Assembly (NCBI GenBank): GCA_028873825.1
Contig: JAPPNM010000088.1
Location: 1 to 36,944 of the forward strand
From: Gemmatimonadota bacterium
GTDB taxonomy: Bacteria > Gemmatimonadota > Gemmatimonadetes > Longimicrobiales > Gaopeijiaceae
Direction of reading: 5' to 3'
DNA length: 36,944 bases
The position numbers and the translations under genes were made by a program. This document shows positions 2,143-36,944 of this stretch, piece after piece; position 1 is the first letter of the stretch; each line of letters begins with the position of its first letter. The notes under the pieces are model-generated. The model had not been told where the DNA came from, searched no databases, and was given only the letters and a program-made list of their open reading frames with translations.

Positions 2143-2379
2143 TCAAGACGGGAAGGCTGCGCCACGCCGACCGGCGACCGGAGCCAAGCCTCGGTCGCCC
2201 GTCGGCGCTTCGCGGCTATCGAACAGTTCCGCCAGAAACGGATCCGTCGGCCGCCGGTCCTCGAACCAACGCACCAGTTCCTCTTGGGACATGTCCCGGA
2301 TCTCTGCGCTGATGCGGTCACGGGTACGGCGCGTCCACTTCACGCAGTCGAACGCCTTCTCTCCTGCCTCAGTCTTCAT
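2143..2379 (-). CDS. Small hypothetical protein between PIN domain and hsdS, possible antitoxin
   Basis: MKTEAGEKAFDCVKWTRRTRDRISAEIRDMSQEELVRWFEDRRPTDPFLAELF; overlaps the 3' end of the hsdM-PIN ORF. Confidence 0.55.
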   Translation of the reverse strand: MKTEAGEKAFDCVKWTRRTRDRISAEIRDMSQEELVRWFEDRRPTDPFLAELFDSREAPTGDRGLAPVAGRRGAAFPS

Positions 2380-2821
2380 TCTCAAGCTCCTTCGGGCTCC
2401 GGATCTCCACCGGAAGATACCCCATCCGGCGGTTCACGTCGGCGTATTGCCGGATCCGACTCAGGTTTACCATGTGGCGGAAGTTCCAGCTCGCCAGCAC
2501 GTCCACCCCGGACACGGTCGCGGCGGCGATGTGCTGGGCATCGGCGCGCATTCCCTTGCCGAGCGCTCCGCTCTCGACGTAGCGGTCCGCGAGTTCCCTG
2601 ATCTCGCCCGTGATGGCGACCACCTCCACGTTGTCGGCCCCCACGGCCCGGAGCACATCCCGGACCGCTTGGGGCGCACGTTCCAGTTCCTGAAGCGTAA
2701 CCGCCGACAAGACCAGGGTCACCTCGCCCCGCGCACACCGCTCCATCAGCCTCCGGGACGACTCCCGGAACTCGTCGTCCTCGCAGCCGCCGATCACGGA
2801 TGTGTCGGCGTAGACGCGCAT
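2369..2821 (-). other. PIN-like nuclease domain portion of the HsdM fusion
   Basis: Starts with its own ATG (2819-2821): MRVYADTSVIGGCEDDEFRESSRRLMERCARGEVTLVLSAVTLQELERAP...ADAQHIAAATVSGVDVLASWNFRHMVN. Confidence 0.8.
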
Positions 2822-4975: not shown

Positions 4976-5303
4976 GTCGAGGAATCGTTAGTGGCTTTCA
5001 GGAAGGGCTTCCGCCTAGGTCGCCGAGGAAACCCCGTTACGATAACGTACCGACCACGGAGGGGCCTTGGTAGCGGGCTGCGGGAGCGACGTTTGTCACG
5101 AGAGGGAGAACCGGTCGCGCGGTGTTGCCGACGGTTCGTCGTTGAGACACGGCCAACGACATCCCACTCCTTCAAGGCTGATCCTCGGGCGCGAATCCCG
5201 TTCTAGCTCCATAGTGTGTTGTCCTCATCGGGCGCTCTTCGCATCTTTCACATCCGGTTCCTCCTACCCTCTGAAGGATGCCCTTAAAGCACCGGTCACC
5301 GAC

Positions 5304-6737
5304 ATGCTAGAGTTCCAGCCACCGCGGGTCCTAAGTCTCCGCCAGCAATGGTGTGTCGGGGAACAGGTGGGATCCGGCGGCTTTGGCCGCGTCCACGTGA
5401 TTGAGTCGGAGGGCGTGGCCCCCCATGTAGCCAAGTTCATCCCGAAGGACCCAGGCGCTGATCGGGAGCTTCTGTTTCCACGATTCCCAGGTATCCGGAA
5501 TGTCGTACCCGTTGCCGATACCGGAGAGTGGGAAGCCTACTGGATCATCGTCATGCCGAAGGCCGAAATGTCCTTGGCTGACCTCCTATCCAATGCCGGA
5601 GGCCCCCTGCCCGAGGACCAAGCGACGCCCATCCTTCTCGACATGGCCGAGGCATTGGCATCCATGAAGGACCACGTCGTGCATCGTGACGTCAAGCCAG
5701 CCAACATCCTCTTCCTGGACGGTCGCTGGCGTTTGGCGGACTTCGGTATTTCCCGCTACGCCGAGGCAACCACCGCCAAGAATACACGGAAGTTCGCTTG
5801 GACCCCTCCGTACGCGGCACCGGAACGGTGGAGAGAGGAAAGGGCGACTAGCGCGACCGATGTCTACGCGTTTGGCTGTGTAGCATACCATCTCTTGGCG
5901 GGCCACCCTCCATTCGGCGGGCCGGAGTCCCATGACTATCGGAGGCAACACTTGGACGACGCGCCTGCACCGATCCCGAACGTCGCCCCCGAAATGGCTT
6001 CTCTCGTAGACGAGTGCCTCACGAAAGCACCGTGGGCACGACCGGATCCCGAGAGCATACTGTCCAGACTGAAGCGGGTTGGCGGCTCGCAAACTGAAGG
6101 CGCACGCAGACTTCAGGAAGCCAATTCCCAAGTAGTTCGGCAGCAGGTGGAACGAGCCAGCATCGAATCGGCAGCCCAGTCCGAGCGAGAGCGCAAGGGC
6201 GGGCTGAGGGAAGCCGCTGAGAAGTCGCTTATGCGGATTGTGACGATGCTCCACGACCAGATTCGGAGTCTGGCGTCGGCGAGCGTTGCCGACAGGCCAA
6301 GTACGAACGGGTGGCGGGCCAGTTTGGGTAGGGCAGCCCTCAGCGTCGCGGCTTTTTCTCAAGCGGACGAGGTGTTCGCGCCTCTCGGCGATGTCAAGTG
6401 GGAGATTCTCGCATCCTCGACCATCGCCTTACGCACTCCCAGTGATCGAGATGGGTATGAAGGGATGGCTCATTCTCTTTGGTATTTCCGACAGAGCGAA
6501 AATGACCCCTATCGGTGGTACGAGTTGGCGTTCAAGGTCAACGCACTGTATCGCTACCGAAGTACCGTCAACCCATTTTCCCTGCCTCCGGGTAATGGTG
6601 ATGCGGAGTTCGCGCTTTCTCCGGGCATGCACAGGATTGACGTGGCAAGGCACCCAAGTCCAGTCGACCAGGGAGCGGAGGAGAACTTCGTTGAGGAGTG
6701 GATTAGCCGACTTGCAGACGCCGTTGCCGGGGCCTGA
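5304..6737 (+). CDS. Hanks-type Ser/Thr protein kinase with uncharacterised C-terminal extension
   Basis: GSGGFGRVHV glycine loop, VHRDVKPANILF, DFG, YAAPERW, DVYAFGCVAYHLLAG. Confidence 0.92.
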   Translation: MLEFQPPRVLSLRQQWCVGEQVGSGGFGRVHVIESEGVAPHVAKFIPKDPGADRELLFPRFPGIRNVVPVADTGEWEAYWIIVMPKAEMSLADLLSNAGGPLPEDQATPILLDMAEALASMKDHVVHRDVKPANILFLDGRWRLADFGISRYAEATTAKNTRKFAWTPPYAAPERWREERATSATDVYAFGCVAYHLLAGHPPFGGPESHDYRRQHLDDAPAPIPNVAPEMASLVDECLTKAPWARPDPESILSRLKRVGGSQTEGARRLQEANSQVVRQQVERASIESAAQSERERKGGLREAAEKSLMRIVTMLHDQIRSLASASVADRPSTNGWRASLGRAALSVAAFSQADEVFAPLGDVKWEILASSTIALRTPSDRDGYEGMAHSLWYFRQSENDPYRWYELAFKVNALYRYRSTVNPFSLPPGNGDAEFALSPGMHRIDVARHPSPVDQGAEENFVEEWISRLADAVAGA

Positions 6738-9150: not shown

Positions 9151-9360
9151 GCACTGCACGCGCGACATACGCAGGACGGCGCCACGCCACGTAGGACAGA
9201 CATGACAACCGGAGTTGTCACTATGTAAGGTGAAGTGTACATCTCTTCGCCCCTTTGCCACGCTCGGTTCACGGCTCGTCCCGCATGCCCGCCTCGTTCG
9301 ATAAGGGCGACACGGTGTCACCCTTCGTTTCGGGAACTTCGCGGACGCCTGCCGCGAGCG
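9151..9360. repeat. Dispersed intergenic element, copy A
   Basis: CTGCACGCGCGACATACGCAGGACGG...TGACAACCGGAGTTGTCA...AAGGGCGACACGGTGTCACCCTT...GCGGACGCCTGCCGCGA. Confidence 0.85.
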
Positions 9361-10911: not shown

Positions 10912-11136
10912 TCAGCCGTCTTCGCGCCCCCGCGTGCGGGCGATGTCGTAGGACGACTGCATCCGCATCAGCGTGTCCATCCTGACCCCGAAGGCCTTCT
11001 CGATGCGCAGCGCCATCATCCCGGACAGGCCCGACCGGCCACTAAGAAAGGTGGAGAGCGCCGGCCGAGACACGCCGAGTACCTTGGCAGCGGTGGCTAC
11101 GGTCAGACCCTGCGGCTCGATCACCTCGGTCCTCAC
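10912..11136 (-). pseudogene. Orphan HigA-type antitoxin copy, frameshifted at N-terminus, toxin missing
   Basis: Near-identical to 16944-17261 (VIEPQGLTVATAAKVLGVSRPALSTFLSGRSGLSGMMALRIEKAFGVRMDTLMRMQSSYDIARTRGRED); GGGG to GGG in the start region. Confidence 0.8.
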
Positions 11137-11216
11137 GAACGCACCGGGTGTGGAGGATTCAGCATGCGCATGTCGTGCTCCGGTCTAATGTTCGTGGCAA
11201 GATTGATCCTCCTCTG

Positions 11217-12696: not shown

Positions 12697-13170
12697 TGAG
12701 GAGTGTACCGCATACCGGTACGCGTGTCAATCGCTGCCACCCCGCTCGCCGCCGAACCCGAAGCGCGTTCGCTGGACGACCGGGACTATGCGGCGGTCTG
12801 CTTCGAGTGACCCGGAGCCTCTGATGCCGAAAGACACGGAGCGGAACACCGAGCCAGTCCGGACCATTCGCCACACCGAGAGTGGCCATTCGGTCGATCG
12901 CGCGGAGCTGCTTCGCAGTGAGCGGGTTCGCAAGGTCATTTCCGAGGTCGCGGACAAGCTGAAGGTCACCCGGGCGGTGGAATCCCGGCGCACGACCTCG
13001 GAATCCACTTCGTAAAACGAATACAGATACAGCATCCGGCTCCATCTGGCCACAGCGGCAACGCTATCTGGGAATCCACGTGCCCACCGCTGCGCGGCCT
13101 ACCATGGACCGTCTGATCGTCACCCGTCCATCCCCATAACCGGCCTTGATCGTCTCTTGAACGCCCCTCC

Positions 13171-13420
13171 GAGCGAGCGCTGCACGCGCGACATACGCAG
13201 GACGGCACAACGCCACATATGACAAACATGACAACCGGAGTTGTCATTATGTAAGGTGAAGTGTACATCTCGTCGCTCCTTCGCCAGGTTCGGTTCACGG
13301 CTCGTCCCGCACGGCCGCCTCGTTCGATAAGGGTGACACCGTGTCACCCTTTGCTTCGGGAACCCCGTGGACGCCTGCCGCGACGAGCGGATCGACGGGG
13401 CAGGCGCCGATCCCACCGCC
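13171..13420. repeat. Dispersed intergenic element, copy B
   Basis: GAGCGAGCGCTGCACGCGCGACATACGCAGGACGG...TGACAACCGGAGTTGTCATTATGTAAGGTGAAGTGTACATC...AAGGGTGACACCGTGTCACCCTT. Confidence 0.88.
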
Positions 13421-13436
13421 GTGGACCCGGCATATG

Positions 13437-16943: not shown

Positions 16944-17261
16944 CTATGTCCCCGTTCCCGTCGACCCCGGGCCGGCGCCCGCCCGATACGGCTCGATGTC
17001 GAGCTCGTCTTCGCGCCCTCGCGTGCGGGCGATGTCGTAGGACGACTGCATCCGCATCAGCGTGTCCATCCTGACCCCGAAGGCCTTCTCGATGCGCAGC
17101 GCCATCATCCCGGACAGGCCCGACCGGCCGTTCAGAAAGGTGGAGAGCGCCGGCCGGGACACGCCGAGCACTTCGGCGGCAGCGGCTACGGTCAGACCCT
17201 GGGGCTCGATCACCTCGGTCCTCACGAACGCACCGGGGTGTGGAGGACTCAGCATGCGCAT
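16944..17261 (-). CDS. higA: HigA-family antitoxin (second locus)
   Basis: MRMLSPPHPGAFVRTEVIEPQGLTVAAAAEVLGVSRPALSTFLNGRSGLSGMMALRIEKAFGVRMDTLMRMQSSYDIARTRGRE. Confidence 0.93.
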   Translation of the reverse strand: MRMLSPPHPGAFVRTEVIEPQGLTVAAAAEVLGVSRPALSTFLNGRSGLSGMMALRIEKAFGVRMDTLMRMQSSYDIARTRGREDELDIEPYRAGAGPGSTGTGT

Positions 17262-17274
17262 GTCGTGCTCCGGT

Positions 17275-17556
17275 CTAATGGTAGTCCTCGATTTTCAGGT
17301 CCACGATCTCGTTGCCGGCGACGTAGAACGTCAGCCGCCAGTTCCGCGTCACGTGGAGGCTCCAGAAGTCCCTGCGATCCCCGGCCAGGCGATGTGCTCG
17401 CCATATCCCGAGCGCCCGCAGTTCGTTCGGGTGCTCCATGTCCTGCAGGAAGGCCAGCATCTTCCGCAGCTTGTCCACTGCCGATGGCGCAACTCCTCGC
17501 GGATCGTCCCTTAGGAACAGGCGGCGCAAACCCCCGTGGGGAACGTTTCGGATCTT
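17275..17556 (-). CDS. higB: HigB-family toxin (second locus), start codon unclear
   Basis: KIRNVPHGGLRRLFLRDDPRGVAPSAVDKLRKMLAFLQDMEHPNELRALGIWRAHRLAGDRRDFWSLHVTRNWRLTFYVAGNEIVDLKIEDYH; expected Met position is AAG; the ORF stays open upstream to 17724. Confidence 0.8.
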   Translation of the reverse strand, partial: KIRNVPHGGLRRLFLRDDPRGVAPSAVDKLRKMLAFLQDMEHPNELRALGIWRAHRLAGDRRDFWSLHVTRNWRLTFYVAGNEIVDLKIEDYH

Positions 17557-17918
17557 CGCCGTATAGTGTTGGAACCGCTTTACGGATGTCAAGATGGACT
17601 CGGAGGATTCCGCCTCAAGATCAGTTCGGCCGATCATTGCTTCGTCAATCCGCGCGGGATTTCGCAGCTCGCCCCCGAAGTCGAGGATCTGATTCCCGCG
17701 GACCGTGGGTCGGGAGACTCGCACGATGCGGGCGTGTACGGCACGGCGCCAATCGGGGTGCCCGGACGCTGCGTGACCCGTATCCGGATATCCTCACGGT
17801 CGACCTGCTGGGGCTGGAGCCACCGCCGGCGCCCACCCTAAGCACGACGAGAGCGACCACGGATTCCGCCAAGCACTCACCCCCACGCGCCGCTTGGGCC
17901 ACCCAAACGCCCTAGAAA

Positions 17919-18006: not shown

Positions 18007-18996
18007 ATGGCCAGCGCCGAACACCTCAAGGCACTACTGAGGTCGCACCTGGACGGCGACCACGACCGCTTCATGTCGGTCGCCATGCAGGTGGCCGCCC
18101 ACGAAGCGAGGCTGGGCCACGGCAAGCTGGCCACCGATCTGCGCGACATCGTCGATCAGGCGAAGAGCCGCAGCAACGCGAACTCGCCGGTCCCGATCGG
18201 CCGGCCGCGCGGAGAGCTCGCCGGCCTGCTCGAGGCTTCCTATCCCAGGTCGCGACTGGGAGACATGATCCTCGGGAAGACGCTCGCGGACCGGATCGGG
18301 CGCGTCATTCGCGGGCAGCGCCACGCCGGGCGGATTCTCGACCACGGCCTTTCCCCGAGGCGGAAGCTCCTGTTCGTCGGCCCTCCGGGCACCGGGAAGA
18401 CGCTCGCCGCTTCGGTCCTGGCGGGCGAACTCGGTCTTCCTCTGCTTCAGGTCCGGCTCGACGGCCTCATCACGAGATTCATGGGCGAGACCGCGGCCAA
18501 GCTGCGGCAGATCTTCGACGCCACCGGCCGGACCAGGGGGGTGTACTTCTTCGACGAGTTCGACGCGATCGGCTCGGAACGCGCGATCGCCAACGACGCG
18601 GGCGAGATCCGGCGGGTGCTGAACAGCTTCCTCCGGATGATCGAGCAGGACCGATCCCACAGCATGGTGACGGCGGCGACCAACCACCCCGGGATGCTCG
18701 ACCGCGCGCTCTTCCGCCGATTCGACGACATACTCCGCTTCGAGCTGCCCGACGAGTCGCAGATCGCCGAGCTGCTGAAGATGCGGCTCGCCGGGACGGC
18801 GCGGCGCCCGGTCGCGTGGAGCGACCTTGCGAGCCGGGCCGCCGGGCTGAGCTACGCGGAGGTGGCGCGGGCCGCGGACGACGTGATCAAGGACGCGCTG
18901 GTTTCTGGCCGGGCCCGGGTCGGGCAGGAGGAGATTCGTGCGACGCTCGAGGAATTGAAGGCGGCCGGGGAGCGGTTCGGGAGGGCGCGGGCGTAG
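18007..18996 (+). CDS. AAA+ ATPase, IetA-like (ATPase of ATPase/subtilase pair), apparently intact
   Basis: FVGPPGTGKT Walker A, GVYFFDEFDAIGSER Walker B, ATNHPGMLDRALFRRFD sensor/arginine finger. Confidence 0.92.
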   Translation: MASAEHLKALLRSHLDGDHDRFMSVAMQVAAHEARLGHGKLATDLRDIVDQAKSRSNANSPVPIGRPRGELAGLLEASYPRSRLGDMILGKTLADRIGRVIRGQRHAGRILDHGLSPRRKLLFVGPPGTGKTLAASVLAGELGLPLLQVRLDGLITRFMGETAAKLRQIFDATGRTRGVYFFDEFDAIGSERAIANDAGEIRRVLNSFLRMIEQDRSHSMVTAATNHPGMLDRALFRRFDDILRFELPDESQIAELLKMRLAGTARRPVAWSDLASRAAGLSYAEVARAADDVIKDALVSGRARVGQEEIRATLEELKAAGERFGRARA

Positions 18997-19014
18997 TCGG
19001 CGCTCGATCTCGAC

Positions 19015-19080
19015 ATGGCCAACGGGGGCGAGGGGAAGGATGCACACTTCATGCTCGAAGGCGTCACTGAGACTGAGACG
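19015..19080 (+). pseudogene. N-terminal stub of S8 subtilase (IetS-like) fused in frame to sce7726 ORF
   Basis: MANGGEGKDAHFMLEGVTETE parallels MANGGEGRNRHFILQGVTATEAYRYPGGG at 35024, then diverges. Confidence 0.75.
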
Positions 19081-19158
19081 TGCGGTTTCGTTCAGGACGG
19101 AGGTTCGATCGTTGCCGCCGTCAGCCCGGGTTCAGCCCGGGAGTCCGTAGACCGGGAC

Positions 19159-19728
19159 ATGGGGGTGCGGCCGGTACTTCGGAGGTATCTGGACCAACAG
19201 CAGTTGGCTTGCCCGGACACGGTACTGATCGAGGAATTGGGGCTGTGCCAAGGGCTGGCTCGGATCGACCTCGCGACGGTTAGCAGCGTACTTCATGGCT
19301 ACGAGATCAAGTCGAATCGGGACCGGTTGAGTCGATTGGCCTCCCAAGCCGAGACGTACAGCCGCGTCTTCGACCGCGTCACCCTTGTTGTTGGCACCAA
19401 GCATATCAAAGCTGCCCTCAAGCTCGTTCCCCGGTGGTGGGGTCTGCTCCTAGTTCGCGGTGATGTCGAGGGAGTCTTGCTCGATCCGTTCCGTCCTGCC
19501 GATGAGAATCCCGGCCAGGATCCGCGTGCGCTGGTCGAGCTGCTTTGGCGCGACGAGGCCTTGGAACTACTTGCGCGCCACAATGCTGCGGGGGGTGTGC
19601 GCAGCAAACCGAGACCGGCGGTGTGGGACCGCGTGTGCGAGGCACTCGATCTGACTCAGATCCGGTCAGCGGTGCGGTACCGGCTCAGGACCCGGGCAGA
19701 GACCTCAACGTCCGCATCACTTCGGTGA
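19159..19728 (+). CDS. sce7726 family protein
   Basis: EELGLCQGLARIDLATVSSVLHGYEIKSNRDRLSRLASQAETYSRVFDRVTLVVGTKHIKAALKLVPRWWGLLLV. Confidence 0.85.
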   Translation: MGVRPVLRRYLDQQQLACPDTVLIEELGLCQGLARIDLATVSSVLHGYEIKSNRDRLSRLASQAETYSRVFDRVTLVVGTKHIKAALKLVPRWWGLLLVRGDVEGVLLDPFRPADENPGQDPRALVELLWRDEALELLARHNAAGGVRSKPRPAVWDRVCEALDLTQIRSAVRYRLRTRAETSTSASLR

Positions 19729-20749
19729 TGTGATGCACGGTTCCGATTCGTCGCCACACCTCTGGTGATCCGAGGCGCGGTTGGCCGTCCGCGGCTCGTT
19801 TGATCGAGGCGCAACCCTCGCAATGGGCTTCCCCGCGGAAGTGATCACAGAGATACCCGTAAGCCAACCGCTTCGCCAACTGGGGGAATTGCATACGAGC
19901 CGGGTGTCTGCGAGTGCCCTTCCCCTTGATCAAGAGCCAGCTGTCGGCAAGCGCGTACCGCACGCTGGCAGACACCTGCATCATCCGAGGATCGAATCCC
20001 TCGACTCCCGAAGGATGCTGGATTGCACAGTCGCTGTATGTGGGAACGCGCGAAAACCGGCCGCCGTCGCGCAGGCGCTTCCAGGCCAACCACTCGACAC
20101 GCGTAACCACGGCGTGGGAGTCGCGGTCGACCACGCCCATGCTCTTTGGAAACGCTGAGGCCGAGACGATGAGCGTTCTCCATCGATTGCGGTCGGGAAC
20201 ATCCCCGAGGAACTGACTGGCGAGCCGGGCTACTCCTTCTGTGACCATGTCCTCCACCGGGCCCAAGTCCAGGATGAGGTCGGCATCCTCGCGCTCGATC
20301 CCGTGGCGAGCCATGAAGGCAGATAGGCCGGATGAGAGGTCGCCGGCCTCGAAATCGTCGCGAGTTAGCCGGATGGCCAATCCACGCTCCTGATTGCGCA
20401 CCGCCGCGGAAGCGTCCGCCCTTTTCGTGATGCCGGTTACGGGAATGAACGGGATTCCAGCGTCAGCGGCCCTATTGAAGATCTGTTCAGCTGCCGATGG
20501 ACCCTGGCGTGCCAGTTCTCGAGCATCCAGGAAGCACCGGGGGTACCATCGCAGGCTCTTGGCCAAGTCCTTGAACGCTGTATCCAAGTGACTGCGTAGG
20601 GTGGGCTTGTCCTGGCGCTTGCGCCACTCCACGATCTCAAGGAGCGGGGTGACATGTTCTCGAAGGGTCAGGGCGACGAGCTGAAGGGCACTCTTCTCCG
20701 CGCGCTTGACCTTCAGAACCGGAACGTAGTGCCTGGAACCGAATGTCAT
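19685..20749 (-). CDS. Beta family protein (T4 beta-protein-like)
   Basis: YVPVLKVKRAEKSALQLVALTLREHVTPLLEIVEW...ADLILDLGPVED...; neighbour of sce7726 gene. Confidence 0.75.
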   Translation of the reverse strand: MTFGSRHYVPVLKVKRAEKSALQLVALTLREHVTPLLEIVEWRKRQDKPTLRSHLDTAFKDLAKSLRWYPRCFLDARELARQGPSAAEQIFNRAADAGIPFIPVTGITKRADASAAVRNQERGLAIRLTRDDFEAGDLSSGLSAFMARHGIEREDADLILDLGPVEDMVTEGVARLASQFLGDVPDRNRWRTLIVSASAFPKSMGVVDRDSHAVVTRVEWLAWKRLRDGGRFSRVPTYSDCAIQHPSGVEGFDPRMMQVSASVRYALADSWLLIKGKGTRRHPARMQFPQLAKRLAYGYLCDHFRGEAHCEGCASIKRAADGQPRLGSPEVWRRIGTVHHITEVMRTLRSLPGS

Positions 20750-21354
20750 TACTTCTCCTCATACGCGCCCCAGAGGACCAAGGGCGCAAGCTCGTTCTCT
20801 CGGTCGCGAAGATACGAACGCAACCCCTGCTCCGGGTCCTGTACGCTAGGAGAGAAACAGATCCGCATGACGGTGTCAGCCTGCCGAACCGGTTCGATTC
20901 TGTCTCGCACTGCTGCGGCTCCGAGTTCACGGCAAAGCGCAAGCAGCACGGCTTCGACGAGGACGATCCGGCCTGAAAGGGCTTCCGGGAATCGGTCCAG
21001 ACGCTTGAGGGCGCGGAGTGCTCTCAGGTCGCCTGACAAGACCGGAAGCTGAAGATCCGCAGCCGTCGCAAAGAGGATGGCTTCTCCCGGATCGATGGCG
21101 GGAATGGGGGCAAGCTGTTCCAGCCATGGAGCGGGTGCATGCCGGACGGGCGGCATGCTCTCAGCCAGGGGGATCAAGCGCTCACAAACGGCCGCTCCGT
21201 ATGTCCGGTGCAGTCCCCCACGCCGTAGCATGTAGGGGAGCGCGGGGAGCCGACGACACTCCTGGAGTCTCACGCCAAGGCACTCAGCAGCATCCGACAG
21301 AAGGTCGGACGCCGCCAGTTTGCAGAACGCGTCGCTATCAACCAGCAGGCGCAT
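20749..21354 (-). CDS. PIN-like (VapC-like) domain protein
   Basis: MRLLVDSDAFCKLAASDLL...IDPGEAILFATAADLQLPVLSGDLRALRAL; stop/start overlap TAATG with the beta gene. Confidence 0.7.
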   Translation of the reverse strand: MRLLVDSDAFCKLAASDLLSDAAECLGVRLQECRRLPALPYMLRRGGLHRTYGAAVCERLIPLAESMPPVRHAPAPWLEQLAPIPAIDPGEAILFATAADLQLPVLSGDLRALRALKRLDRFPEALSGRIVLVEAVLLALCRELGAAAVRDRIEPVRQADTVMRICFSPSVQDPEQGLRSYLRDRENELAPLVLWGAYEEK

Positions 21355-22357
21355 CGTAAGTCACGGACGCAGGAACGACCACCCTCATGAGCTCTCGGTC
21401 GCTCAGAGAAGCGCCCTCGACGTCTACGAACATCCTGAAGTACTTCCTGAGGGTTCGGCCGGCCCCGGTCGACAGGTACAACGCCTTGGTCGCCATGGTG
21501 GCGGTCGCATAGTCACCGCTGGTACGCGCCCACGTAAAGATGATCGCCCCCGCATCAATGCCTGTTTGCTGCTCTATCTCTACCGCGCGATTTGCCAACG
21601 TCCGGAAGTCATCGAAAGCACCGGGGTCGAGTTCAGGAATCGTGTGTTCGCCCATGACCACCCGCATCGCGTACCGGTCCGCGAATCTCTCCATCTCGTC
21701 ATCCGAGACGATCTCCTCATCCTTGTCGACCACCGGTGCACCAGGCATGCAGTCTCCCCTTGCGATGTGGCCGGCCTCATGCGAGATGCGAAACGCTGCG
21801 CGACCGGGCTCATCATGCCTGTGTCCCAACACGACCACGGGCCGGTCCTCTACCACTGCAGCGAGCCCCTGGAAGCTCGGGGCCGGTAGCAGCTGGGTAG
21901 GAACAACGGGAATCCCGCGAGCCCAAAGGTCCTTGAGAATGGTGTCCAGATCCACGCTGCCGCCCAAGTCCGGGAGTTCCTGGCGCCATGCGAGTCCGTT
22001 CGGAGGAGGCGGCGCAGGAGCAGGCACCGATTCGTTCAGGTTCCGCACCACGGCTCCCGCGATCCCCGTCGCGGCGTGGATCGCCGGCGTCAGGCGGTCA
22101 CGGTCGACATCACGGACGCACCGAAGCCGGGCCTTCGGGTAGCCCGGAGCAGCCAGCATTGATTCCGGGTCGGTCACCACCGACATGGGGACTCCCAGGA
22201 AACGGCCTACCCGGATCTCGATTTCGGGGAGGAGGTCCGGCTCGCTCCGACAACTCTGATCCCACCAATCGGGCAGGATCGCCCGACGGACGAATTCCCT
22301 CTCGAAGCCGGCTTCACGGAGCCGACGAGTCAGCGTCGATATGGATCGCTTTGCCAC
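21338..22357 (-). CDS. ImmA/IrrE family metallo-endopeptidase
   Basis: FRISHEAGHIARGD zinc motif; GTG start with AGGGAGG upstream. Confidence 0.88.
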   Translation of the reverse strand: MAKRSISTLTRRLREAGFEREFVRRAILPDWWDQSCRSEPDLLPEIEIRVGRFLGVPMSVVTDPESMLAAPGYPKARLRCVRDVDRDRLTPAIHAATGIAGAVVRNLNESVPAPAPPPPNGLAWRQELPDLGGSVDLDTILKDLWARGIPVVPTQLLPAPSFQGLAAVVEDRPVVVLGHRHDEPGRAAFRISHEAGHIARGDCMPGAPVVDKDEEIVSDDEMERFADRYAMRVVMGEHTIPELDPGAFDDFRTLANRAVEIEQQTGIDAGAIIFTWARTSGDYATATMATKALYLSTGAGRTLRKYFRMFVDVEGASLSDRELMRVVVPASVTYDAPAG

Positions 22358-22500
22358 TTTGTCCCTCCCTTCGATGGGCTCGCGGAGACGATTGACCGTC
22401 GCCGCGGTAGCTTCGGGTGCCGGGTGAGCACGGAATGTAACACCGACACGGTGACCGAATATATACCGAACATTGAAGTGAGTCCATCCGCGGGGACTCC

Positions 22501-22640: not shown

Positions 22641-22906
22641 TCGGCCACCGGACTCCAATGCTCCGGGGTCAGGCTACGCGGCCGAGGCAGGTGGCAGCTC
22701 CCGGTCTCCCATTCAAGCACGGTGGGAGCCGCATCTCCGACGCTTCCACCGGTCCGGGTGCCGGCGCGCTGATGCTCGTAGTAGTCCGAGTACTCCGAGA
22801 ACGAGAGGGAGCGACGGGCGGCGGCACTTCGTCCCGGAACCGCAGGTCCCGGGCTGACCTCCGAAACGGGCGGACTCTTGAAGATCCGTCGTCGGCGCCG
22901 GTGCGC

Positions 22907-23354
22907 ATGATCCTCGGGAAGACGCTCGCGAATCGGATCGGGCGCGTCATTCGCGAGCAGCGCCACGCCGGGCGGATTCTCGACCACGGCCTTTCCCCGA
23001 GGCGGAAGCTCCTGTTCGTCGGCCCTCCGGGCACCGGGAAGACGCTCGCCGCTTCGGTCCTGGCGGGCGAACTCGGTCTTCCTCTGCTTCAGGTCCGGCT
23101 CGACGGCCTCATCACGAGATTCATGGGCGAGACCGCGGCCAAGCTGCGGCAGATCTTCGACGCCACCGGCCGGACCAGGGGGGTGTACTTCTTCGACGAG
23201 TTCGACGCGATCGGCTCGGAACGCGCGGTCGTCAACGACGTGGGCGAGATTCGGCGGGTGCTGAACAGCTTCCTCCAGATGATCGAGCAGGACCGCTCCC
23301 ACAGCATGGTGACGGCGGCGACCAACCATCCCGGCATGCTCGACCGCGCGCTCT
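22907..23354 (+). pseudogene. Internal fragment of IetA-like AAA+ ATPase (copy 2)
   Basis: MILGKTLANRIGRVIREQRHAGRILDHGLSPRRKLLFVGPPGTGKT...ATNHPGMLDRAL then abrupt loss of homology. Confidence 0.93.
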
Positions 23355-23384: not shown

Positions 23385-23978
23385 TTGAGGAGACCCTGGT
23401 TGCATTCGAGCGACGGGATGTCCGGCAACATCGCGGCGCGCGAGATGCATATCCACGGCCTGCCGTGGCCGTGGGAAGCTCTCAGAGACCTGGGGGAGCC
23501 GCAGGTGGAGATGCGAGTCACCCTCTCCTACTTCATCGAGCCCAACCCTTCACGTCGAGGAACCTCGCGATATCGCTATGAGTCGCACGGTCTCCGCTTC
23601 GACGTCAAGCGACCGCTGGAAACGACGGACGGATTCCGCGGTCGAATCAGCGCGGCGGCCCGTGACGACGAATACAAGCGCGGTGGAGGCGGTATCGATC
23701 CGTCATGGCTCATCGGTACCCAGGGCCGCCATCGCGGATCGATTCATGGCGACATTTGGCGTGGGAGCGCGGCCGACCTCGCCAGCCGGGGGTCGATTGC
23801 CGTCTATCCTACCTCGGGGTGGTGGAAGACGCGCCGGGCACTACGGCAGTACGACCGGGCCGTGCGCTATTCCCTGGCGGTGAGCATCCGGGCGCGGGAA
23901 GTTGACGTGGATCTGTACACCGAGGTGGCGAATCGGATTGCCGTCGAGGCGCCGGTGGAGATCGAAACGGGTCCGTAG
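23385..23978 (+). pseudogene. C-terminal portion of S8 subtilase (IetS-like) joined to ATPase fragment by deletion
   Basis: NIAAREMHIHGLPWPWEALRDLGEPQVEMRVTLSYFIEPNPSRRGTSRYRYESHGLRFDVKRPLE...GSIHGDIWRGSAADLASRGSIAVYPTSGWWKTR; no catalytic D/H/S region. Confidence 0.75.
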
Positions 23979-26088: not shown

Positions 26089-26216
26089 CCTGGAGCTCCT
26101 TCGGTCGGGTTGACACTGGCTTCACCGGCGTCGGCTTGAGCCGGGCTCCGCACGTTCCATCCATTCTCTCCACAATCGCGCGAAGCGTCCACCATTCGAG
26201 ATCGCCGAACGCCGCT

Positions 26217-26562
26217 CCGAGCGAGCGCTGCACGCGCGACATACGCAGGACGGCGCCACGCCACGTAGGACGACATGACAACCGGAGTTGTCATTATGTA
26301 AGGTGAAGTGTACATCTCGTCGCTCCTTCGCCAGGTTCGGTTCACGGCTCGTCCCGCACGGCCGCCTCGTTCGATAAGGGCGACACGGTGTCACCCTTCT
26401 TTTCGGGAACTTCGCGGACGCCTGCCGCGAAGAGTGGATCGACGAGGCTGGCGTGGATCCCGCCGCCGTGAGAGGTCGCTCGAGCATCCGGACGGATGCC
26501 CGCGACGCATCGGCTCGCAGGAAGCACCGGGCGGGAATCGCCTCAATCCGACGCAGGAGGCC
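26217..26562. repeat. Dispersed intergenic element, copy C
   Basis: Same core as copies A/B/D including both palindromes (26274-26291, 26376-26398). Confidence 0.88.
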
Positions 26563-26565
26563 GGC

Positions 26566-30080: not shown

Positions 30081-32540
30081 TCAAAGCGTCTCTGCGATGG
30101 CCTGCAGCCGATCCGCCTGGTCCTTGATCCACCTCGCGGCTTCCAACCATCCGTCCTGGTCGTCTCGGTTCCATGCCCGCCGGACCGTGATGCTTCTTCC
30201 TTCCCTGCTCCGTGACTCCTCGTTCCCGTCGAATTCCTGGTCGCCCATCAGCTCCCGGACCTTCCGTGAGTGCTGGAGCATGCGACCGGCCCTGCTGGGC
30301 GTATCCTGGTACTCGGACGCCCTCAGGTATAGTCCCATCCATGCGTCGGCAACACTCACGCCGATCTTGTCACCCGCTTCGTTGAGTTCCGTCGTCCAAC
30401 AGTTCCAGCTGCGCCACTCGTCGGACTGACCGGGCAGGCCACCCGTCTCTTCCTTGAGAAACGCCCAGAATGCCGCGGTCGTATCTGGCTTCTTCGGAAA
30501 CTCGACCTCGACAAGGAGGCCGCACCGGTTCCCCATGTCTCGACACGACGCGGCACTCGCCGGGTAGTCCCCTCGATACGGATACATCACGTACGAATCG
30601 TGCCCCGGTACGGCCCGCATGGTGAGAGTTCCCGCCTTGCTGCCGGGCGGATACTGGCTGGCCGGATGGAGGTTCGATGAGAGCGCGTCGCCCGTCAGTC
30701 GGTCAGCATTCATCGGGTCCCGGGTGAGAAGCGCGCCGGCAACGTTGAGCACCATCTGACTGGCAGCCTGTTCCTCATGCCAGTCGCCTCCCTCGATGCG
30801 CCATTTCATCCGCCAGCTCTCCGCCCGTGGTCCGTGCGTGTCCGCGTCGGGATCGGACCACGGCCAGAGTCTGAGCGCCGAGTCCGCGAGATCTTCGGCA
30901 CGGCGCTCGAGCGCGGCTTCATTCCAGGCACCTTCCCCGGCTATGCTTCTGGTCAACCCGACGCCGCTGCGTTCCATGATCGGCCGCTTCTCCTCGAACG
31001 GCTTAGCACCGAGTTCCGCGTTGACGCCGCTCAGCGTGAGGTTCGCGAGTCGGTCGCGGTACCACCCATGGATCCGCTCGGCGTCGTCTCCGAGCGCCAG
31101 CCTCCAGTCGTCAGTCAGCTTCTGAGGCAGGACGTGCTCGACCGTAAGGTGGTCGCGCGCAGGAGAGTCCCCGCGCTGCTCCGCCTCCATCATCGCGCAT
31201 AGAACCGCCTTGGTGGCCCGCGTGGCGCCCGCCCCGTAGGCCTTGCGGGTGCGGATTCCCTCCCGCACCGCCTCGTCGTCGGGCACCTCGACACGCGAGT
31301 TGCGGAACCTGCGGATCCGTCCAAGCCAGAACTCCGCGGGATCTTCGTCGCCCTTCGGGCCGGCCCGGTGAGAGAGTTCCGCGAACGCCTTGTTCATCCC
31401 GGCCATGGGACGGCCCGAGAGCCAGAACCGCGTGACCCAGGTCGCGATTCCTGCGAACACCCTGGCCAGCGTCGCGCCGGTCCATTCGACGCCTCCGGTC
31501 GTCGCCGCTTCGTGAAGGAGACGAAGCGTCAGCGGTCGATGAGTGTCGAGTCCCATCGCCCGCAGATGACGGAGCTCGCGCTCGACGTTCCTGTACCGGT
31601 GGGGTTGGGTGGTACCCATGAGGACGCCGTAGTGTGCGGCGATGTCCGCCAGATCGGAGCACAGGGACGAACGATTCTCGGCCCTGCCGTTGCGCACGGC
31701 CCACCGCCGCAGGTCTTCGTAGACGTGCCGGACACCCCGCAGCTCCCCGGTCTTCCAACGGAGGAAGTCCCGAAGAAAGGTGTCGATCCGGTCCGTGTCG
31801 TACTCCGCCTCGAGCGACGCCTCTATCCGCTTCCAGTGGCGGTCGTGGAGCTCCTGCTGTTCCGCGTCCGGCAGACCCATGAGAAGCCAGTTCTTGAGCT
31901 TTTCGCTCTCGGTCAGCGGTCGTCCCGTCGCGTTCAGACTCTCGAAGATCTGCTGGGGATCGTCGCGCTCCCCGAGCCCGATGCTGACCACGCGAAGTCG
32001 CTCGAGTCCGGCGAGGAGCTGAACGATGTCTTTGCGCCGGACTAGCCTGCGCGCGATTCTCCACGCCTGGGCCACCGCGCCCGGCCCCTGAAGGTTGCCT
32101 TCGAGGCCACTCCGGTATTCCTCCTCGTCGCCGTCCTGCAACCGCAGCTTCCGGAACTTGTTGGGGGGCTTTTCCGGATTCGTTAGCCAGTCGTTCCTGA
32201 TGGTCCGTGCCGTCCAGTCCCCGGATTGCCCCTCGGGGCCGAGCGCTTCGGCGATGCAGGCGAGAAGGATGCTCACCGTCGTGAGCCTCTGCTGCCCGTC
32301 GACGACGCGGTGGACGGTCACCGGCTGCACCGCGCGGGATTCGCGGAAGGTCAGCATCGTACCGCCGTAATGTGCGGCCTGGGAGCCCTCCGGCGTTTCC
32401 GCCACGGTCAGGAGGTCGTCGACCAGCCTCTCGATGTCGGACTGGTCCCAGCAGTACCGGCGCTGCCAGCGGGGGACCACGTACTGCACCTGCGAGTTGA
32501 ACAGCTCCAGAAACGCGATGTGCTGAGTATCCAATGGCAT
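30081..32540 (-). CDS. DUF262/DUF1524 (GmrSD-like type IV restriction) protein with DUF4268-like C-terminus
   Basis: VVDGQQRLTT, IFESLNATGRPLTESEKLKNWLL, HLTVEHVLPQ; C-terminal WNRDDQDGWLEAARWIKDQADRL. Confidence 0.92.
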   Translation of the reverse strand: MPLDTQHIAFLELFNSQVQYVVPRWQRRYCWDQSDIERLVDDLLTVAETPEGSQAAHYGGTMLTFRESRAVQPVTVHRVVDGQQRLTTVSILLACIAEALGPEGQSGDWTARTIRNDWLTNPEKPPNKFRKLRLQDGDEEEYRSGLEGNLQGPGAVAQAWRIARRLVRRKDIVQLLAGLERLRVVSIGLGERDDPQQIFESLNATGRPLTESEKLKNWLLMGLPDAEQQELHDRHWKRIEASLEAEYDTDRIDTFLRDFLRWKTGELRGVRHVYEDLRRWAVRNGRAENRSSLCSDLADIAAHYGVLMGTTQPHRYRNVERELRHLRAMGLDTHRPLTLRLLHEAATTGGVEWTGATLARVFAGIATWVTRFWLSGRPMAGMNKAFAELSHRAGPKGDEDPAEFWLGRIRRFRNSRVEVPDDEAVREGIRTRKAYGAGATRATKAVLCAMMEAEQRGDSPARDHLTVEHVLPQKLTDDWRLALGDDAERIHGWYRDRLANLTLSGVNAELGAKPFEEKRPIMERSGVGLTRSIAGEGAWNEAALERRAEDLADSALRLWPWSDPDADTHGPRAESWRMKWRIEGGDWHEEQAASQMVLNVAGALLTRDPMNADRLTGDALSSNLHPASQYPPGSKAGTLTMRAVPGHDSYVMYPYRGDYPASAASCRDMGNRCGLLVEVEFPKKPDTTAAFWAFLKEETGGLPGQSDEWRSWNCWTTELNEAGDKIGVSVADAWMGLYLRASEYQDTPSRAGRMLQHSRKVRELMGDQEFDGNEESRSREGRSITVRRAWNRDDQDGWLEAARWIKDQADRLQAIAETL

Positions 32541-32686
32541 TCCTGTTCGGGGTCATCCGGGTGGGCCGCGCGCCTCGCCCATGAAAACGAATACAGATAC
32601 AGCATCCGGCTCCATCTGGCCACTGGGGGGGACAGGAGGGCGAGCGTCCGCCATCCCGGGATCGCCTCTCGAACTCCCCCGCCGAG

Positions 32687-33024
32687 CGAACGCTGCACCG
32701 CGACATACGCGGGAGGGCACCGCACCACATAGGACAGGAATGACAATCAGAGTTGTCATTATGTAAAGTGAAGTGTACATCTCGTCGCTCCTTCGCCAGG
32801 TTCGGTTCACGGCTCGTCCCGCACGGCAGCCTCGTTCGATAAGGGTGACACCGTGTCACCCTTTGCTTCGGGAACTCCGTGGACGCCTGCCGCGACGAGT
32901 GGATCGACGGGGCTGGCGCCGATCCCGCCGTCGTGAGAGGTCCCTCGAACATCGGATGGATGCGCCCGACACATCGGCTCGCAGGTAGCACCGGGTGGGA
33001 ATCGCCTCGAGCGACGCAAGGAGG
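32687..33024. repeat. Dispersed intergenic element, copy D
   Basis: TGACAATCAGAGTTGTCA (32741-32758), AAGGGTGACACCGTGTCACCCTT (32841-32863); extended homology to copy C through GGGAATCGCCTC. Confidence 0.88.
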
Positions 33025-33269
33025 TCGGCGGCGTGGTCGCAACGGCGCGGACGCTCAATGCGGACCCCGGCAACGTGCTCCTCGCCCACAGCGCCTCGGG
33101 GATCGCGTGGGGGACTTTCTGGATGCCAGTCATCACGAATGGCTCGATCGGGCATCGCTGGCTCCCGACGAACTGGAAGGATTCCTCGAACACCGGGTAG
33201 ACACCCTGGAGACCTTGGCGCAGAAGGACCATTGGCTGGGAGTCGCTTCCGTTGACACAGGAGGGCAGC

Positions 33270-34121: not shown

Positions 34122-34274
34122 TGCTGCGGTGGCAAGCTGGCCACCGAACTGCGCGACATCGTCGATCAGGCGAAGAGCCGCGGCGGCGCGAACTCGCCGG
34201 TCCCGATCGGCCGGCCGCGCGGAGAGCTCGCCGGCCTGCTCGAGGCTTCCTATCCCAGGTCGCGACTGGGAGAC

Positions 34275-35075
34275 ATGATCCTCGGGAAGACGCTCGCGGA
34301 CCGGATCGGGCGCGTCATTCGCGGGCAGCGCCACGCCGGGCGGATTCTCGACCACGGCCTTTCCCCGAGGCGGAAGCTCCTGTTCGTCGGCCCTCCGGGC
34401 ACCGGGAAGACGCTCGCCGCTTCGGTCCTGGCGGGCGAACTCGGTCTTCCTCTGCTTCAGGTCCGGCTCGACGGCCTCATCACGAGATTCATGGGCAAGA
34501 CCGCGGCCAAGCTGCGGCAGATCTTCGACGCCACCGGCAGGACCAGGGGGGCGTACTTCTTCGACGAGTTCGACGCGATCGGCTCGGAACGCGCGATCGC
34601 CGACGACGCGGGCGAGATCCGGCGGGTGCTGAACAGCTTCCTCCAGATGATCGAGCAGGACCGCTCCCACAGCATGGTGATGGCGGCGACCAACCATCCC
34701 GGCATGCTCGACCGCGCGCTCTTCCGCCGATTCGACGACATACTCCGCTTCGAGATGCCCGACGAGTCGCAGATCGCCGAGCTGCTGAAGATGCGGCTCG
34801 CCGGGACGGCGCGGGGGCCGGTCGCGTGGAGCGACCTCGCGAGCCGGGCCGCCGGGCTAAGCTACGCGGAGGTGGCGCGGGCCGCGGACGACGTGATCGA
34901 GGACGCGCTGGTTTCTGGCCGGGCCCGGGTTCGACAGGAGGAAATCGGTGCGATGCTTGAGGAGCTGAAGGCGACCGGGGAGCGGTTCGGGAGGCGCGGG
35001 CGTAGTCGGCGCTCGATCTCGACATGGCCAACGGGGGCGAGGGGAGGAATCGGCACTTCATTCTCCAGGGTGTGA
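34275..35075 (+). pseudogene. IetA-like AAA+ ATPase copy 3, N-terminus missing, C-terminal frameshift
   Basis: Near-identical to 18268-18996 at DNA level; homology begins about 34131; GGAGGGCGCG to GGAGGCGCG shifts the end. Confidence 0.9.
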
Positions 35076-35367
35076 CGGCGACCGAGGCGTACCGCTATCC
35101 GGGAGGCGGCGGCGATGGTCCCAGTGTTCCCCAACGGAATCGGCCCGAACACGCCGCGGCTTTACGAGGGCAGCTGGACGCCGGGATGGAAGAGGGATTG
35201 GGGCTTCAGGTCGAGTTCGAGAGTTTCCCCGATGTGTGCAGCTGGCCTTCGAGAGCCTCGCACGGGATCGCTCCGGAATCGAGCTGCTGAACGTCTGCCA
35301 CGAGGACAAGACTACCCTGGCGACCGGCTTCGCGCCCGACGGCAAGCTCGGTCAATTGAGAGCGTAG
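35024..35367 (+). pseudogene. N-terminal remnant of S8 subtilase (IetS-like), frameshifted, catalytic domain absent
   Basis: MANGGEGRNRHFILQGVTATEAYRYPGGGGDGPSVPQRNRPEHAAALRGQLDA...LGLQVEFESFPDV / LAFESLARDRSGIELLNVCHEDKTTLATGFAPDGKLGQLRA*. Confidence 0.8.
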
Positions 35368-35802: not shown

Positions 35803-36944
35803 TCAGCGAAACATGTCCGTTTGCTCAACCTCATCTTCCTTCGCTAGTGTCTCTGGAAGAAACGCAGGAATCTCCAGCCGTGGGTTCCGGGTGACTGTTA
35901 ACCGCCCTGGCTCAGTGAGGTTCCGCACTACCCCACGACCAATGGCACGGCGCAGGATCTCATGCGCATGTTTTCGCCGACACAGAGAGGCATCAACCAC
36001 GGGGTAGACATCATCTTTGAGCCATACTGTCTTGCCCCCAAAGTGGTTCTCGATCAGCTCGGTGATCGCTCGGTCAGGAGATCGCGTTACAGAAATCAGA
36101 ATCCCCTGCTCGGGCCGATCTCGCTCGTAAGCGGTGAAGCTGCCGTCCGGAAGTTCATGCCACAATGCGCGTTTCATCACCTGCCATCCCTTCAAGCTGT
36201 TGGTCGCGTGAAAGAGAACATACTTGATCGCGCCGGAGTCACCTCGCATGACAACCCAAAAAATATGCTCAGCCTTCAATTGGTCAGAAAAGAGCTTCAC
36301 GGTGGCTTCGAAACGCTTTTCGTGGTTGTTGATCGAGGTCAGCGAACGCCATTCGCCAGTGCCAAACAGCTCATCCAGTATGGTGGACTTGTCTGGAACA
36401 CGGAGAGCCATGTCCACGTACCGATACATGAAGTTGATCAAGGCCTCCGTCTTTCCGGCTGTAAGTAGTCGGTTCATAAACGGCATTGAGAGTTTAAATC
36501 CGAACGGATCGATGAATGCGAAAGATGGTGGCAATTCCGTACCGGCGCGTTCCAATCCGTCCAGAGCCTGCGATAGGGCTGACTCATAGTCGGTTCGATG
36601 CACATGTGTGCTGATCCGAGAAGGCAAGGGTCCGATCCTGGTGATCTCTTGACACAGCAGATTGGCATTCAAATCATTTAGCTCAAAGAAGTGGCAAGCG
36701 ATGGCGACACGATCAAGAATCCGAGAAAGATGTTGGTGACCAAGTAGCTTCTCCAAGACCAGAATGGGCGATCCGGCGTCACCGCTAGCGTGTCTACCTC
36801 TCCCCGCATGACAGTCCAAATAGAGGAGTTGGCCCTTGAAGGCGGAGAGAATAGGGAACCAACCGTTTAGGTACCTTGCTAGGATACGGTGGGGGATTAT
36901 GCCCTTGAGTTGACGCGGGCGGGTTCCTGCTCCACCTTTTCGGG
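35803..36944 (-). CDS. Three-Cys-motif partner protein TcmP-like, 5' end beyond window
   Basis: IIPHRILARYLNGWFPILSAFKGQLLYLDCHAGRGRHASGDAGSPILVLEKLL...SFAFIDPFGFKLSMPFMNRLL; open frame to window end. Confidence 0.8.
   Translation of the reverse strand, partial: RKGGAGTRPRQLKGIIPHRILARYLNGWFPILSAFKGQLLYLDCHAGRGRHASGDAGSPILVLEKLLGHQHLSRILDRVAIACHFFELNDLNANLLCQEITRIGPLPSRISTHVHRTDYESALSQALDGLERAGTELPPSFAFIDPFGFKLSMPFMNRLLTAGKTEALINFMYRYVDMALRVPDKSTILDELFGTGEWRSLTSINNHEKRFEATVKLFSDQLKAEHIFWVVMRGDSGAIKYVLFHATNSLKGWQVMKRALWHELPDGSFTAYERDRPEQGILISVTRSPDRAITELIENHFGGKTVWLKDDVYPVVDASLCRRKHAHEILRRAIGRGVVRNLTEPGRLTVTRNPRLEIPAFLPETLAKEDEVEQTDMFR

What the first reader, a model, noticed from the sequence alone, without database searches (positions are those of the whole stretch)
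19015..22357. sce7726 / beta-family / PIN-like / ImmA-IrrE module sits inside a disrupted subtilase gene
A + strand sce7726 gene converges (44-bp 3' overlap) on a compact minus-strand operon ImmA/IrrE - PIN-like - beta with overlapping starts and stops. The package replaces the subtilase right after its N-terminus. It is a candidate defence or TA-like system of four proteins whose joint function, as far as I know, is not established.
Basis: partly seen in the sequence, partly recalled or inferred. Interest (0 to 1): 0.7.

Follow-up and report, generated by a model that had tools for sequence, protein, structure and literature searches.

The report
Four-gene P4-beta-type phage-defence cassette
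A compact set of four genes (a protease, a probable RNA-cutting toxin, a 'beta' protein and a probable DNA-cutting enzyme) recurs in the same order in several groups of bacteria and looks like a new build of two experimentally known phage-defence systems; that it lies in a broken protease gene here is an accident of this genome.

Summary
In detail: sce7726 (+, 19015-19728) converges with a 44-bp 3' overlap on a minus-strand operon ImmA/IrrE > PIN-like > beta (22357-19685). The four genes are a real unit. Genomes found with the PIN gene alone (Gemmatimonadota, Acidobacteriota, and MAG bins labelled Proteobacteria and Bacillota) carry all four in the same order and orientation in 7 of 8 cases; the eighth is a decayed remnant. 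The 17-bp ImmA/PIN and 4-bp PIN/beta overlaps are nearly invariant.

The module is built from two separable halves. Beta >< sce7726 is the beta/cII pair of satellite phage P4 (gop-beta-cII), found alone in other phages and plasmids. ImmA > PIN is a TA-like pair, found without beta in Acidobacteriota-group genomes. Relative to PD-lambda-2 (HigB, Xre-ImmA, beta), a PIN protein stands in for HigB and sce7726 is always present. Neighbours are often defence genes (IetAS, type I/IIG RM, Hma). I infer an abortive-infection, toxin-antitoxin-like defence module; function is untested. The IetS (subtilase) setting is incidental: the nearest relative of the cassette is not next to IetAS.

The parts
18007..18996 (+). 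IetA (AAA ATPase of the IetAS defence system), complete copy; context, not part of the cassette
   Evidence: PADLOC IetA E 2e-70
19015..19081 (+). First 22 codons of IetS (subtilase), all that remains of this copy; fused in frame to sce7726
   Evidence: DNA 95% identical to 34131-35090 up to 19081, then divergence
19094..22487 (.). Extent of the cassette as DNA homology to the same cassette in G128 (L006 11962-8577, 81%)
   Evidence: blastn
19015..19728 (+). sce7726-family / P4 cII homologue; probable PD-(D/E)XK nuclease (conserved E, D, ExK, Q); conserved domain begins about 19159
   Evidence: NF033832 E 7e-43, PADLOC cll E 3e-22, alignment A4
19685..19728 (.). 44-bp convergent 3' overlap of sce7726 and beta, conserved elsewhere (35/44 bp, one 155 bp)
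19685..20749 (-). Beta-family protein (PD-lambda-2 C / P4 beta homologue)
   Evidence: PF14350 E 3e-61; PD-Lambda-2_C E 8e-38, beta E 1e-5
20749..21354 (-). PIN-like protein, probable ribonuclease toxin; D6, E91, D109 invariant
   Evidence: phrog_15597 E 5e-18; A2; AF2 pLDDT 91.6; Foldseek top hits PIN/VapC/FitB
21338..21354 (-). 17-bp ImmA/PIN overlap, same length in 7 of 8 cassettes
21338..22357 (-). ImmA/IrrE (M78) metalloprotease with a PDWW-motif N-terminal domain; HExxH plus downstream E intact
   Evidence: phrog_18577 E 8e-30; A5; hhalign to PD-lambda-2 B-type proteins, probability 97% over the protease region
22454..22470 (-). TTCGGTATATATTCGGT direct-repeat element upstream of immA, kept in G128; candidate operator/promoter, not seen in the more distant cassettes
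   Evidence: inference
22906..23354 (+). Truncated second IetA copy (97.5% to 18264-18712), context
23385..23978 (+). IetS C-terminal remnant, context
   Evidence: PADLOC IetS E 1e-6, profile 705-850

Best explanation
The cassette is a mobile, four-gene anti-phage module of toxin-antitoxin (abortive-infection) type, made by joining two two-gene units that also exist apart. Shown here: ImmA > PIN is one unit and beta >< sce7726 (P4 beta/cII) is the other; the four travel together with near-fixed overlaps and under purifying selection. Inferred: the PIN protein is an RNase whose activity harms the cell; the ImmA/IrrE metalloprotease, translated just before it and overlapping it, keeps it in check or controls the operon, as Xre-ImmA proteins do in RosmerTA-type systems; beta holds the toxin arm back until infection, as P4 beta does for Gop; sce7726 acts as a PD-(D/E)XK-type nuclease that attacks or senses phage DNA and so triggers or reinforces the response. 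Phage infection would upset the ImmA/beta control, release the PIN RNase and stop the cell before phage progeny are made.
For: Found by PIN alone, 7 of 8 other genomes have all four genes in identical order and orientation, the eighth is a decayed remnant. ImmA/PIN overlap 17 bp in 7/8; PIN/beta overlap 4 bp in 7/8; beta/sce7726 3' overlap in all 8. pN/pS 0.29-0.39 for each gene between window and G128, so the genes are kept by purifying selection. Homology to proven anti-phage systems: PD-Lambda-2_C 8e-38, PD-Lambda-2_B 3e-5, P4 cII 3e-22; PD-lambda-2 and gop-beta-cII protect E. coli (PMC9519451, PMC9122126). Defence neighbours in window, L009, L013, L014; mobile-element genes beside L006, L010, L011. 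ImmA-PIN pairs without beta and beta-sce7726 pairs without ImmA/PIN in phages, plasmids and viral contigs show the two halves. COG2856-PIN operons were predicted as TA systems (PMC2701414).
Against: No activity is shown for any protein of this cassette. PIN assignment rests on a confident model but weak Foldseek E-values (best 0.09, TM 0.42-0.45) and no Pfam PIN hit. The nuclease reading of sce7726 rests on motif conservation; no PDB relative was found. The beta model was poor (pLDDT 62), so its role is by analogy only. In PD-lambda-2 the Xre-peptidase itself was toxic and the HigB-like protein neutralised it, so which component is the toxin here cannot be assigned by analogy alone.
Confidence: 0.6

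Rival explanations
1. The cassette is mainly an addiction/maintenance module of mobile elements (ImmA-PIN TA pair) that has captured beta and sce7726; stabilising islands is its job and phage defence is incidental.
For: ImmA-PIN occurs alone; integrases or phage-type replication genes lie beside L006, L010, L011; sporadic distribution, 3 of 395 genomes in the phylum.
Against: Defence-island neighbours in four loci and membership of beta and cII in two systems with proven anti-phage activity; a fixed four-gene architecture is more than a TA pair needs.
Confidence: 0.2
2. The PIN and ImmA genes are a regulator pair for a nuclease system: ImmA cleaves a repressor on DNA damage or infection and switches on sce7726/beta, which do the killing; PIN is not the main effector.
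For: ImmA is an anti-repressor protease in ICEBs1 and IrrE a stress regulator in Deinococcus (discussed in PMC2701414); beta >< sce7726 stands alone in many phages, so it can exist without PIN.
Against: sce7726 is transcribed from the opposite strand; no shared operator was found in the distant cassettes; PIN catalytic-type residues are invariant.
Confidence: 0.15
3. The four genes are neighbours by chance within a defence island.
For: Defence islands bring unrelated systems together; the window copy does lie in one.
Against: Same order, orientation and overlap lengths in eight genomes under several phylum labels.
Confidence: 0.01

Closest known systems
PD-lambda-2 (Vassallo et al. 2022, PMC9519451)
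   Same: Homologous beta (C) and homologous ImmA/IrrE protease region (B); toxin-like gene plus ImmA plus beta in one operon; TA-like.
   Different: HigB-like A is absent, a PIN-like protein takes its place; order is ImmA-PIN-beta instead of HigB-ImmA-beta; the ImmA N-terminus is not recognised as Xre; sce7726 is always present here, but absent next to the closest PD-lambda-2 B/C loci examined (L065, L074) and present in rhizobial ones.
gop-beta-cII of satellite phage P4 (Rousset et al. 2022, PMC9122126)
   Same: beta and cII (annotated sce7726 family) in convergent orientation, with a toxin-type gene upstream of beta.
   Different: gop is absent; ImmA and PIN stand in its place; P4 beta and cII do not overlap (27-bp gap), here they always do; the window beta is much closer to PD-lambda-2 C than to P4 beta.
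ImmA/IrrE (COG2856)-PIN toxin-antitoxin operons (Makarova et al. 2009, PMC2701414; NetFlax D25-PIN, PMC10440598)
   Same: Adjacent ImmA and PIN genes with overlapping ends; also found here without beta in six loci of five genomes of the group around L014.
   Different: Those are two- or three-gene TA predictions; here the pair forms an operon with beta and is paired with convergent sce7726.
RosmerTA (RmrA/RmrT)
   Same: ImmA-protease antitoxin with a neighbouring toxin.
   Different: Only weak RmrA hits (best E 4e-4), no Xre domain found, no RmrT found.

Membership tests
PD-lambda-2 | Beta-family third component (C) | tested here: met
   PD-Lambda-2_C E 8e-38 over nearly full length; PF14350 E 3e-61
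PD-lambda-2 | Xre HTH fused to ImmA/IrrE peptidase (B) | tested here: inconclusive
   Peptidase region matches (PD-Lambda-2_B E 3e-5; hhalign 97%) but no HTH family hit at E 0.1; the N-terminus is a PDWW-type domain
PD-lambda-2 | HigB-like first component (A) | tested here: not met
   No HigB gene in the cassette; PIN-like gene instead, in a different position
PD-lambda-2 | Abortive anti-phage activity | not testable with these tools
   Needs phage challenge
gop-beta-cII | cII (sce7726) gene | tested here: met
   PADLOC cll E 3e-22; P4 cII found by the cassette's sce7726 profile at E 5e-21
gop-beta-cII | beta gene, convergent with cII | tested here: met
   Convergent in window and P4; homology to P4 beta is weak (E 1e-5)
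gop-beta-cII | gop toxin gene upstream of beta | tested here: not met
   No gop hit; PIN profile against P4 Gop: hhalign probability 0.1%
PIN-domain nucleases | PIN fold with conserved acidic residues | tested here: inconclusive
   Model pLDDT 91.6; most top PDB matches are PIN/VapC/FitB, probability up to 0.99 but E at best 0.09 and TM 0.42-0.45; D6, E91, D109 invariant
ImmA/IrrE (M78) metalloproteases | HExxH zinc motif and downstream acidic ligand | tested here: met
   H193-E194-x-x-H197 and E223 invariant in eight sequences; distant PDB relatives CapP and IrrE at E 0.09-0.4
PD-(D/E)XK nucleases (sce7726) | E...D...ExK...Q active-site pattern | tested here: inconclusive
   E26, D37, E49, K51, Q63 invariant in 14 diverse sequences; no solved relative found by sequence
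COG2856-PIN toxin-antitoxin operons | ImmA directly upstream of PIN | tested here: met
   17-bp overlap; also in six loci of five genomes without beta/sce7726

The most novel reading that the evidence does not exclude
Beta and cII/sce7726 are a shared two-gene core of a large class of phage-defence systems, whose convergent 3' overlap is itself functional (sense-antisense coupling of the toxin operon with the nuclease gene), and to which different toxin arms are attached: Gop, HigB-XreImmA, DUF6932-XreImmA, or ImmA-PIN as here.
Probability: 0.2. Interest if true: 0.7.

Novelty: new variant of a known kind. Interest (0 to 1): 0.52.

Why it matters
It links three things described separately (P4 gop-beta-cII, PD-lambda-2 and the predicted ImmA-PIN toxin-antitoxin pairs) into one modular scheme, and it gives sce7726 and beta, two recurrent 'hypothetical' families, a concrete testable role. 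Two published systems share beta, yet in the papers I could search nobody asks whether PD-lambda-2-type loci have an overlooked partner in sce7726; the rhizobial loci and this cassette say they sometimes do.

Tried and rejected
Chance neighbourhood: rejected. Subtilase (IetS) as a functional part or preferred insertion site: rejected, G128 and L014 have the cassette elsewhere. PIN as a divergent Gop: rejected. PIN-like proteins in GenBank phages, plasmids and IMG/VR by single-sequence or pattern search: none found, so the phage origin implied by the PHROG families could not be traced. A common operator upstream of immA: only shared by window and G128. Tree congruence of the four genes: distance matrices correlate (r 0.74-0.91, p at most 0.01), but without the close window/G128 pair the PIN correlations drop to r 0.35-0.48, p 0.07-0.14, so congruence is only suggestive with seven sequences. 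Beta structure prediction was too poor to search. PDB profile searches with sce7726 and PIN gave only chance hits.

Full report
WHAT IS THERE. The four genes lie as described. sce7726 runs 19015-19728 on the plus strand; beta 19685-20749, PIN-like 20749-21354 and ImmA/IrrE 21338-22357 run on the minus strand. NCBIfam names sce7726 (E 7e-43), Pfam names beta (PF14350, E 3e-61). The PIN-like protein has no Pfam hit and matches only phrog_15597 (E 5e-18); ImmA matches phrog_18577 (E 8e-30) and carries an intact HEAGH motif. PADLOC places beta nearest PD-Lambda-2_C (8e-38), sce7726 nearest P4 cII ('cll', 3e-22) and ImmA weakly nearest PD-Lambda-2_B (3e-5).

THE SUBTILASE. The disrupted gene is IetS of the IetAS defence system, behind a complete IetA. 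IetA plus the first 22 IetS codons (18121-19081) are 95% identical to a second degenerate copy at 34131-35090; homology to the cassette in another genome begins at 19094. The join is in frame, so the annotated sce7726 start (19015) is the old IetS start and sce7726 now sits behind IetA. In G128 the homology begins just after an in-frame ATG, which suggests that only the start region of sce7726 was exchanged; this is inference. The rest of this IetS is not on the far side: there one finds a separate truncated IetA (22906-23354, 97.5% identical to 18264-18712) joined to an IetS C-terminal remnant. A divergent intact IetS exists elsewhere in the genome (C19:29199-31802). The window copies of IetAS are therefore decaying, and the cassette either landed in, or was joined by recombination to, this debris.

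THE FOUR GENES ARE A UNIT. A PHROG profile of the PIN family found 3 of 395 genomes of the phylum; the two besides the window, G128 (same genus) and G116 (same family), have all four genes in the same arrangement. A scan of 84,980 species genomes with the PIN alignment alone gave seven loci: one is G128 again, and the other six come from MAGs labelled Acidobacteria, Vicinamibacterales, Proteobacteria and Bacillota. Five of these six have ImmA > PIN > beta >< sce7726 (in L012 ImmA is cut by the contig start), and the sixth, L013, is a remnant with truncated PIN, no beta and truncated sce7726. The Bacillota label rests on a 5-kb, low-coverage contig and may be a binning error. ImmA and PIN overlap by 17 bp in seven of eight cassettes, PIN and beta by 4 bp in seven of eight (1 bp in the window), and beta and sce7726 overlap by 35 or 44 bp (155 bp in L012). 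pN/pS between window and G128 is 0.29-0.39 for all four genes. In the phylum, beta occurs in 13 of 249 genomes and sce7726 in 12 of 200, so the joint presence is not a matter of abundance.

TWO HALVES. Beta >< sce7726 without ImmA or PIN is found in Escherichia phage Rac-SA53, Gordonia phages Powerball and DumpsterDude, Mycolicibacterium phage Mycofy1, five IMG/VR contigs and Rhodococcus and E. coli plasmids. P4 has gop > beta > < cII. The length of the convergent overlap is 2 modulo 3 in all pairs measured except P4 (no overlap) and G217 (28 bp), as expected if the overlap is ancestral; a general frame bias of convergent overlaps was not tested. Rhizobial plasmids have DUF6932 > Xre-ImmA (PD-Lambda-2_B E 2e-75 and 2e-77) > beta >< sce7726. 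The PD-Lambda-2_B homologues L065 and L074 have ImmA > beta without sce7726. Conversely, distant PIN relatives in the group around L014 (six loci of five genomes) lie directly behind an ImmA of the same type and have no beta or sce7726 within the 3.4-3.6 kb held. So the cassette joins an ImmA-PIN pair to a beta-sce7726 pair; which came first was not resolved.

NEIGHBOURS. The window holds type I RM genes (HsdM 2369-4975, HsdS 690-2321), a large Orf5/SspE/GmrSD-like protein (30081-32540), a PDC-M30A protein (35803-36819) and IetAS copies. In L014 the cassette lies between hmaB and hmaC; in L009 it adjoins an HmaA/BrxH-like helicase and an hmaB fragment; in L013 a type IIG RM enzyme. L011 has an integrase directly upstream, L006 one about 7 kb away, and L010 phage- or satellite-type primase and RepA-like genes. 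L007 has ordinary metabolic neighbours. This is the setting of mobile defence cargo.

MECHANISM. Shown: intact conserved motifs (HExxH plus E in ImmA; D6/E91/D109 in PIN; E-D-ExK-Q in sce7726), tight gene overlaps, purifying selection, defence context. The PIN model is confident (pLDDT 91.6) and its best PDB matches are PIN nucleases, though with weak E-values. Inferred from relatives: P4 Gop is toxic without beta, and gop-beta-cII protects against lambda and P1 (PMC9122126); in PD-lambda-2 B is toxic, A neutralises it and C is needed for defence (PMC9519451); ImmA-domain proteins are antitoxins in RosmerTA (PMC10440598); COG2856-PIN operons were predicted as TA systems (PMC2701414). From these I propose PIN as the toxic RNase, ImmA and beta as its controls, and sce7726 as a nuclease arm or trigger. 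The order of action is not known.

KNOWN OR NEW. Neither PD-lambda-2 nor gop-beta-cII membership holds, since HigB and Gop, respectively, are absent; by its shared parts it probably works like them. Four papers in the held library mention sce7726; judged by title and abstract none is about its function, and searches for the combination found nothing further; subscription literature and most preprints are not covered. I rate it a new variant of a known kind.

Noticed in passing
window 18121-19081, 22906-23354, 34131-35090: Three IetA copies at 95-97.5% DNA identity, only the first complete, all IetS partners broken; recombination between them may shape the island.
   Followed up: partly
window 9151-9357, 13148-13423, 26184-26565, 32643-33029; also 10917-11190 and 17006-17280: Families of 200-390-bp repeats at 86-95% identity scattered through the window; nature not determined.
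   Followed up: no
window 16944-17261 and 17275-17724: An HTH (HigA-like by eye) gene and a HigB-like toxin gene (PF05015, E 2e-10), a separate type II TA pair; the HTH gene lies in the 10917/17006 repeat.
   Followed up: partly
window 30081-32540: 819-aa Orf5/HEC-06/SspE-like protein (PADLOC Orf5 E 2e-95, HEC-06 E 7e-54).
   Followed up: no
L022, L023, L024 (rhizobial plasmids), position 1-1440: A reverse transcriptase gene lies directly upstream of the DUF6932 > Xre-ImmA > beta >< sce7726 operon in three plasmids; possibly a further component.
   Followed up: no
L046 (G046:C37) 4103-5894 and L013 2336-3864: Decayed cassettes: G046 keeps sce7726 and the 3' third of beta; L013 keeps ImmA, half of PIN and a piece of sce7726.
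   Followed up: partly
L103/L108 (G193), L102 (G141): sce7726 genes split over two frames or broken by a stop in relatives of the window genome.
   Followed up: no
L014 4929-8340: Cassette embedded between hmaB and hmaC of an Hma-type defence operon, the second case of nesting within another defence system.
   Followed up: partly
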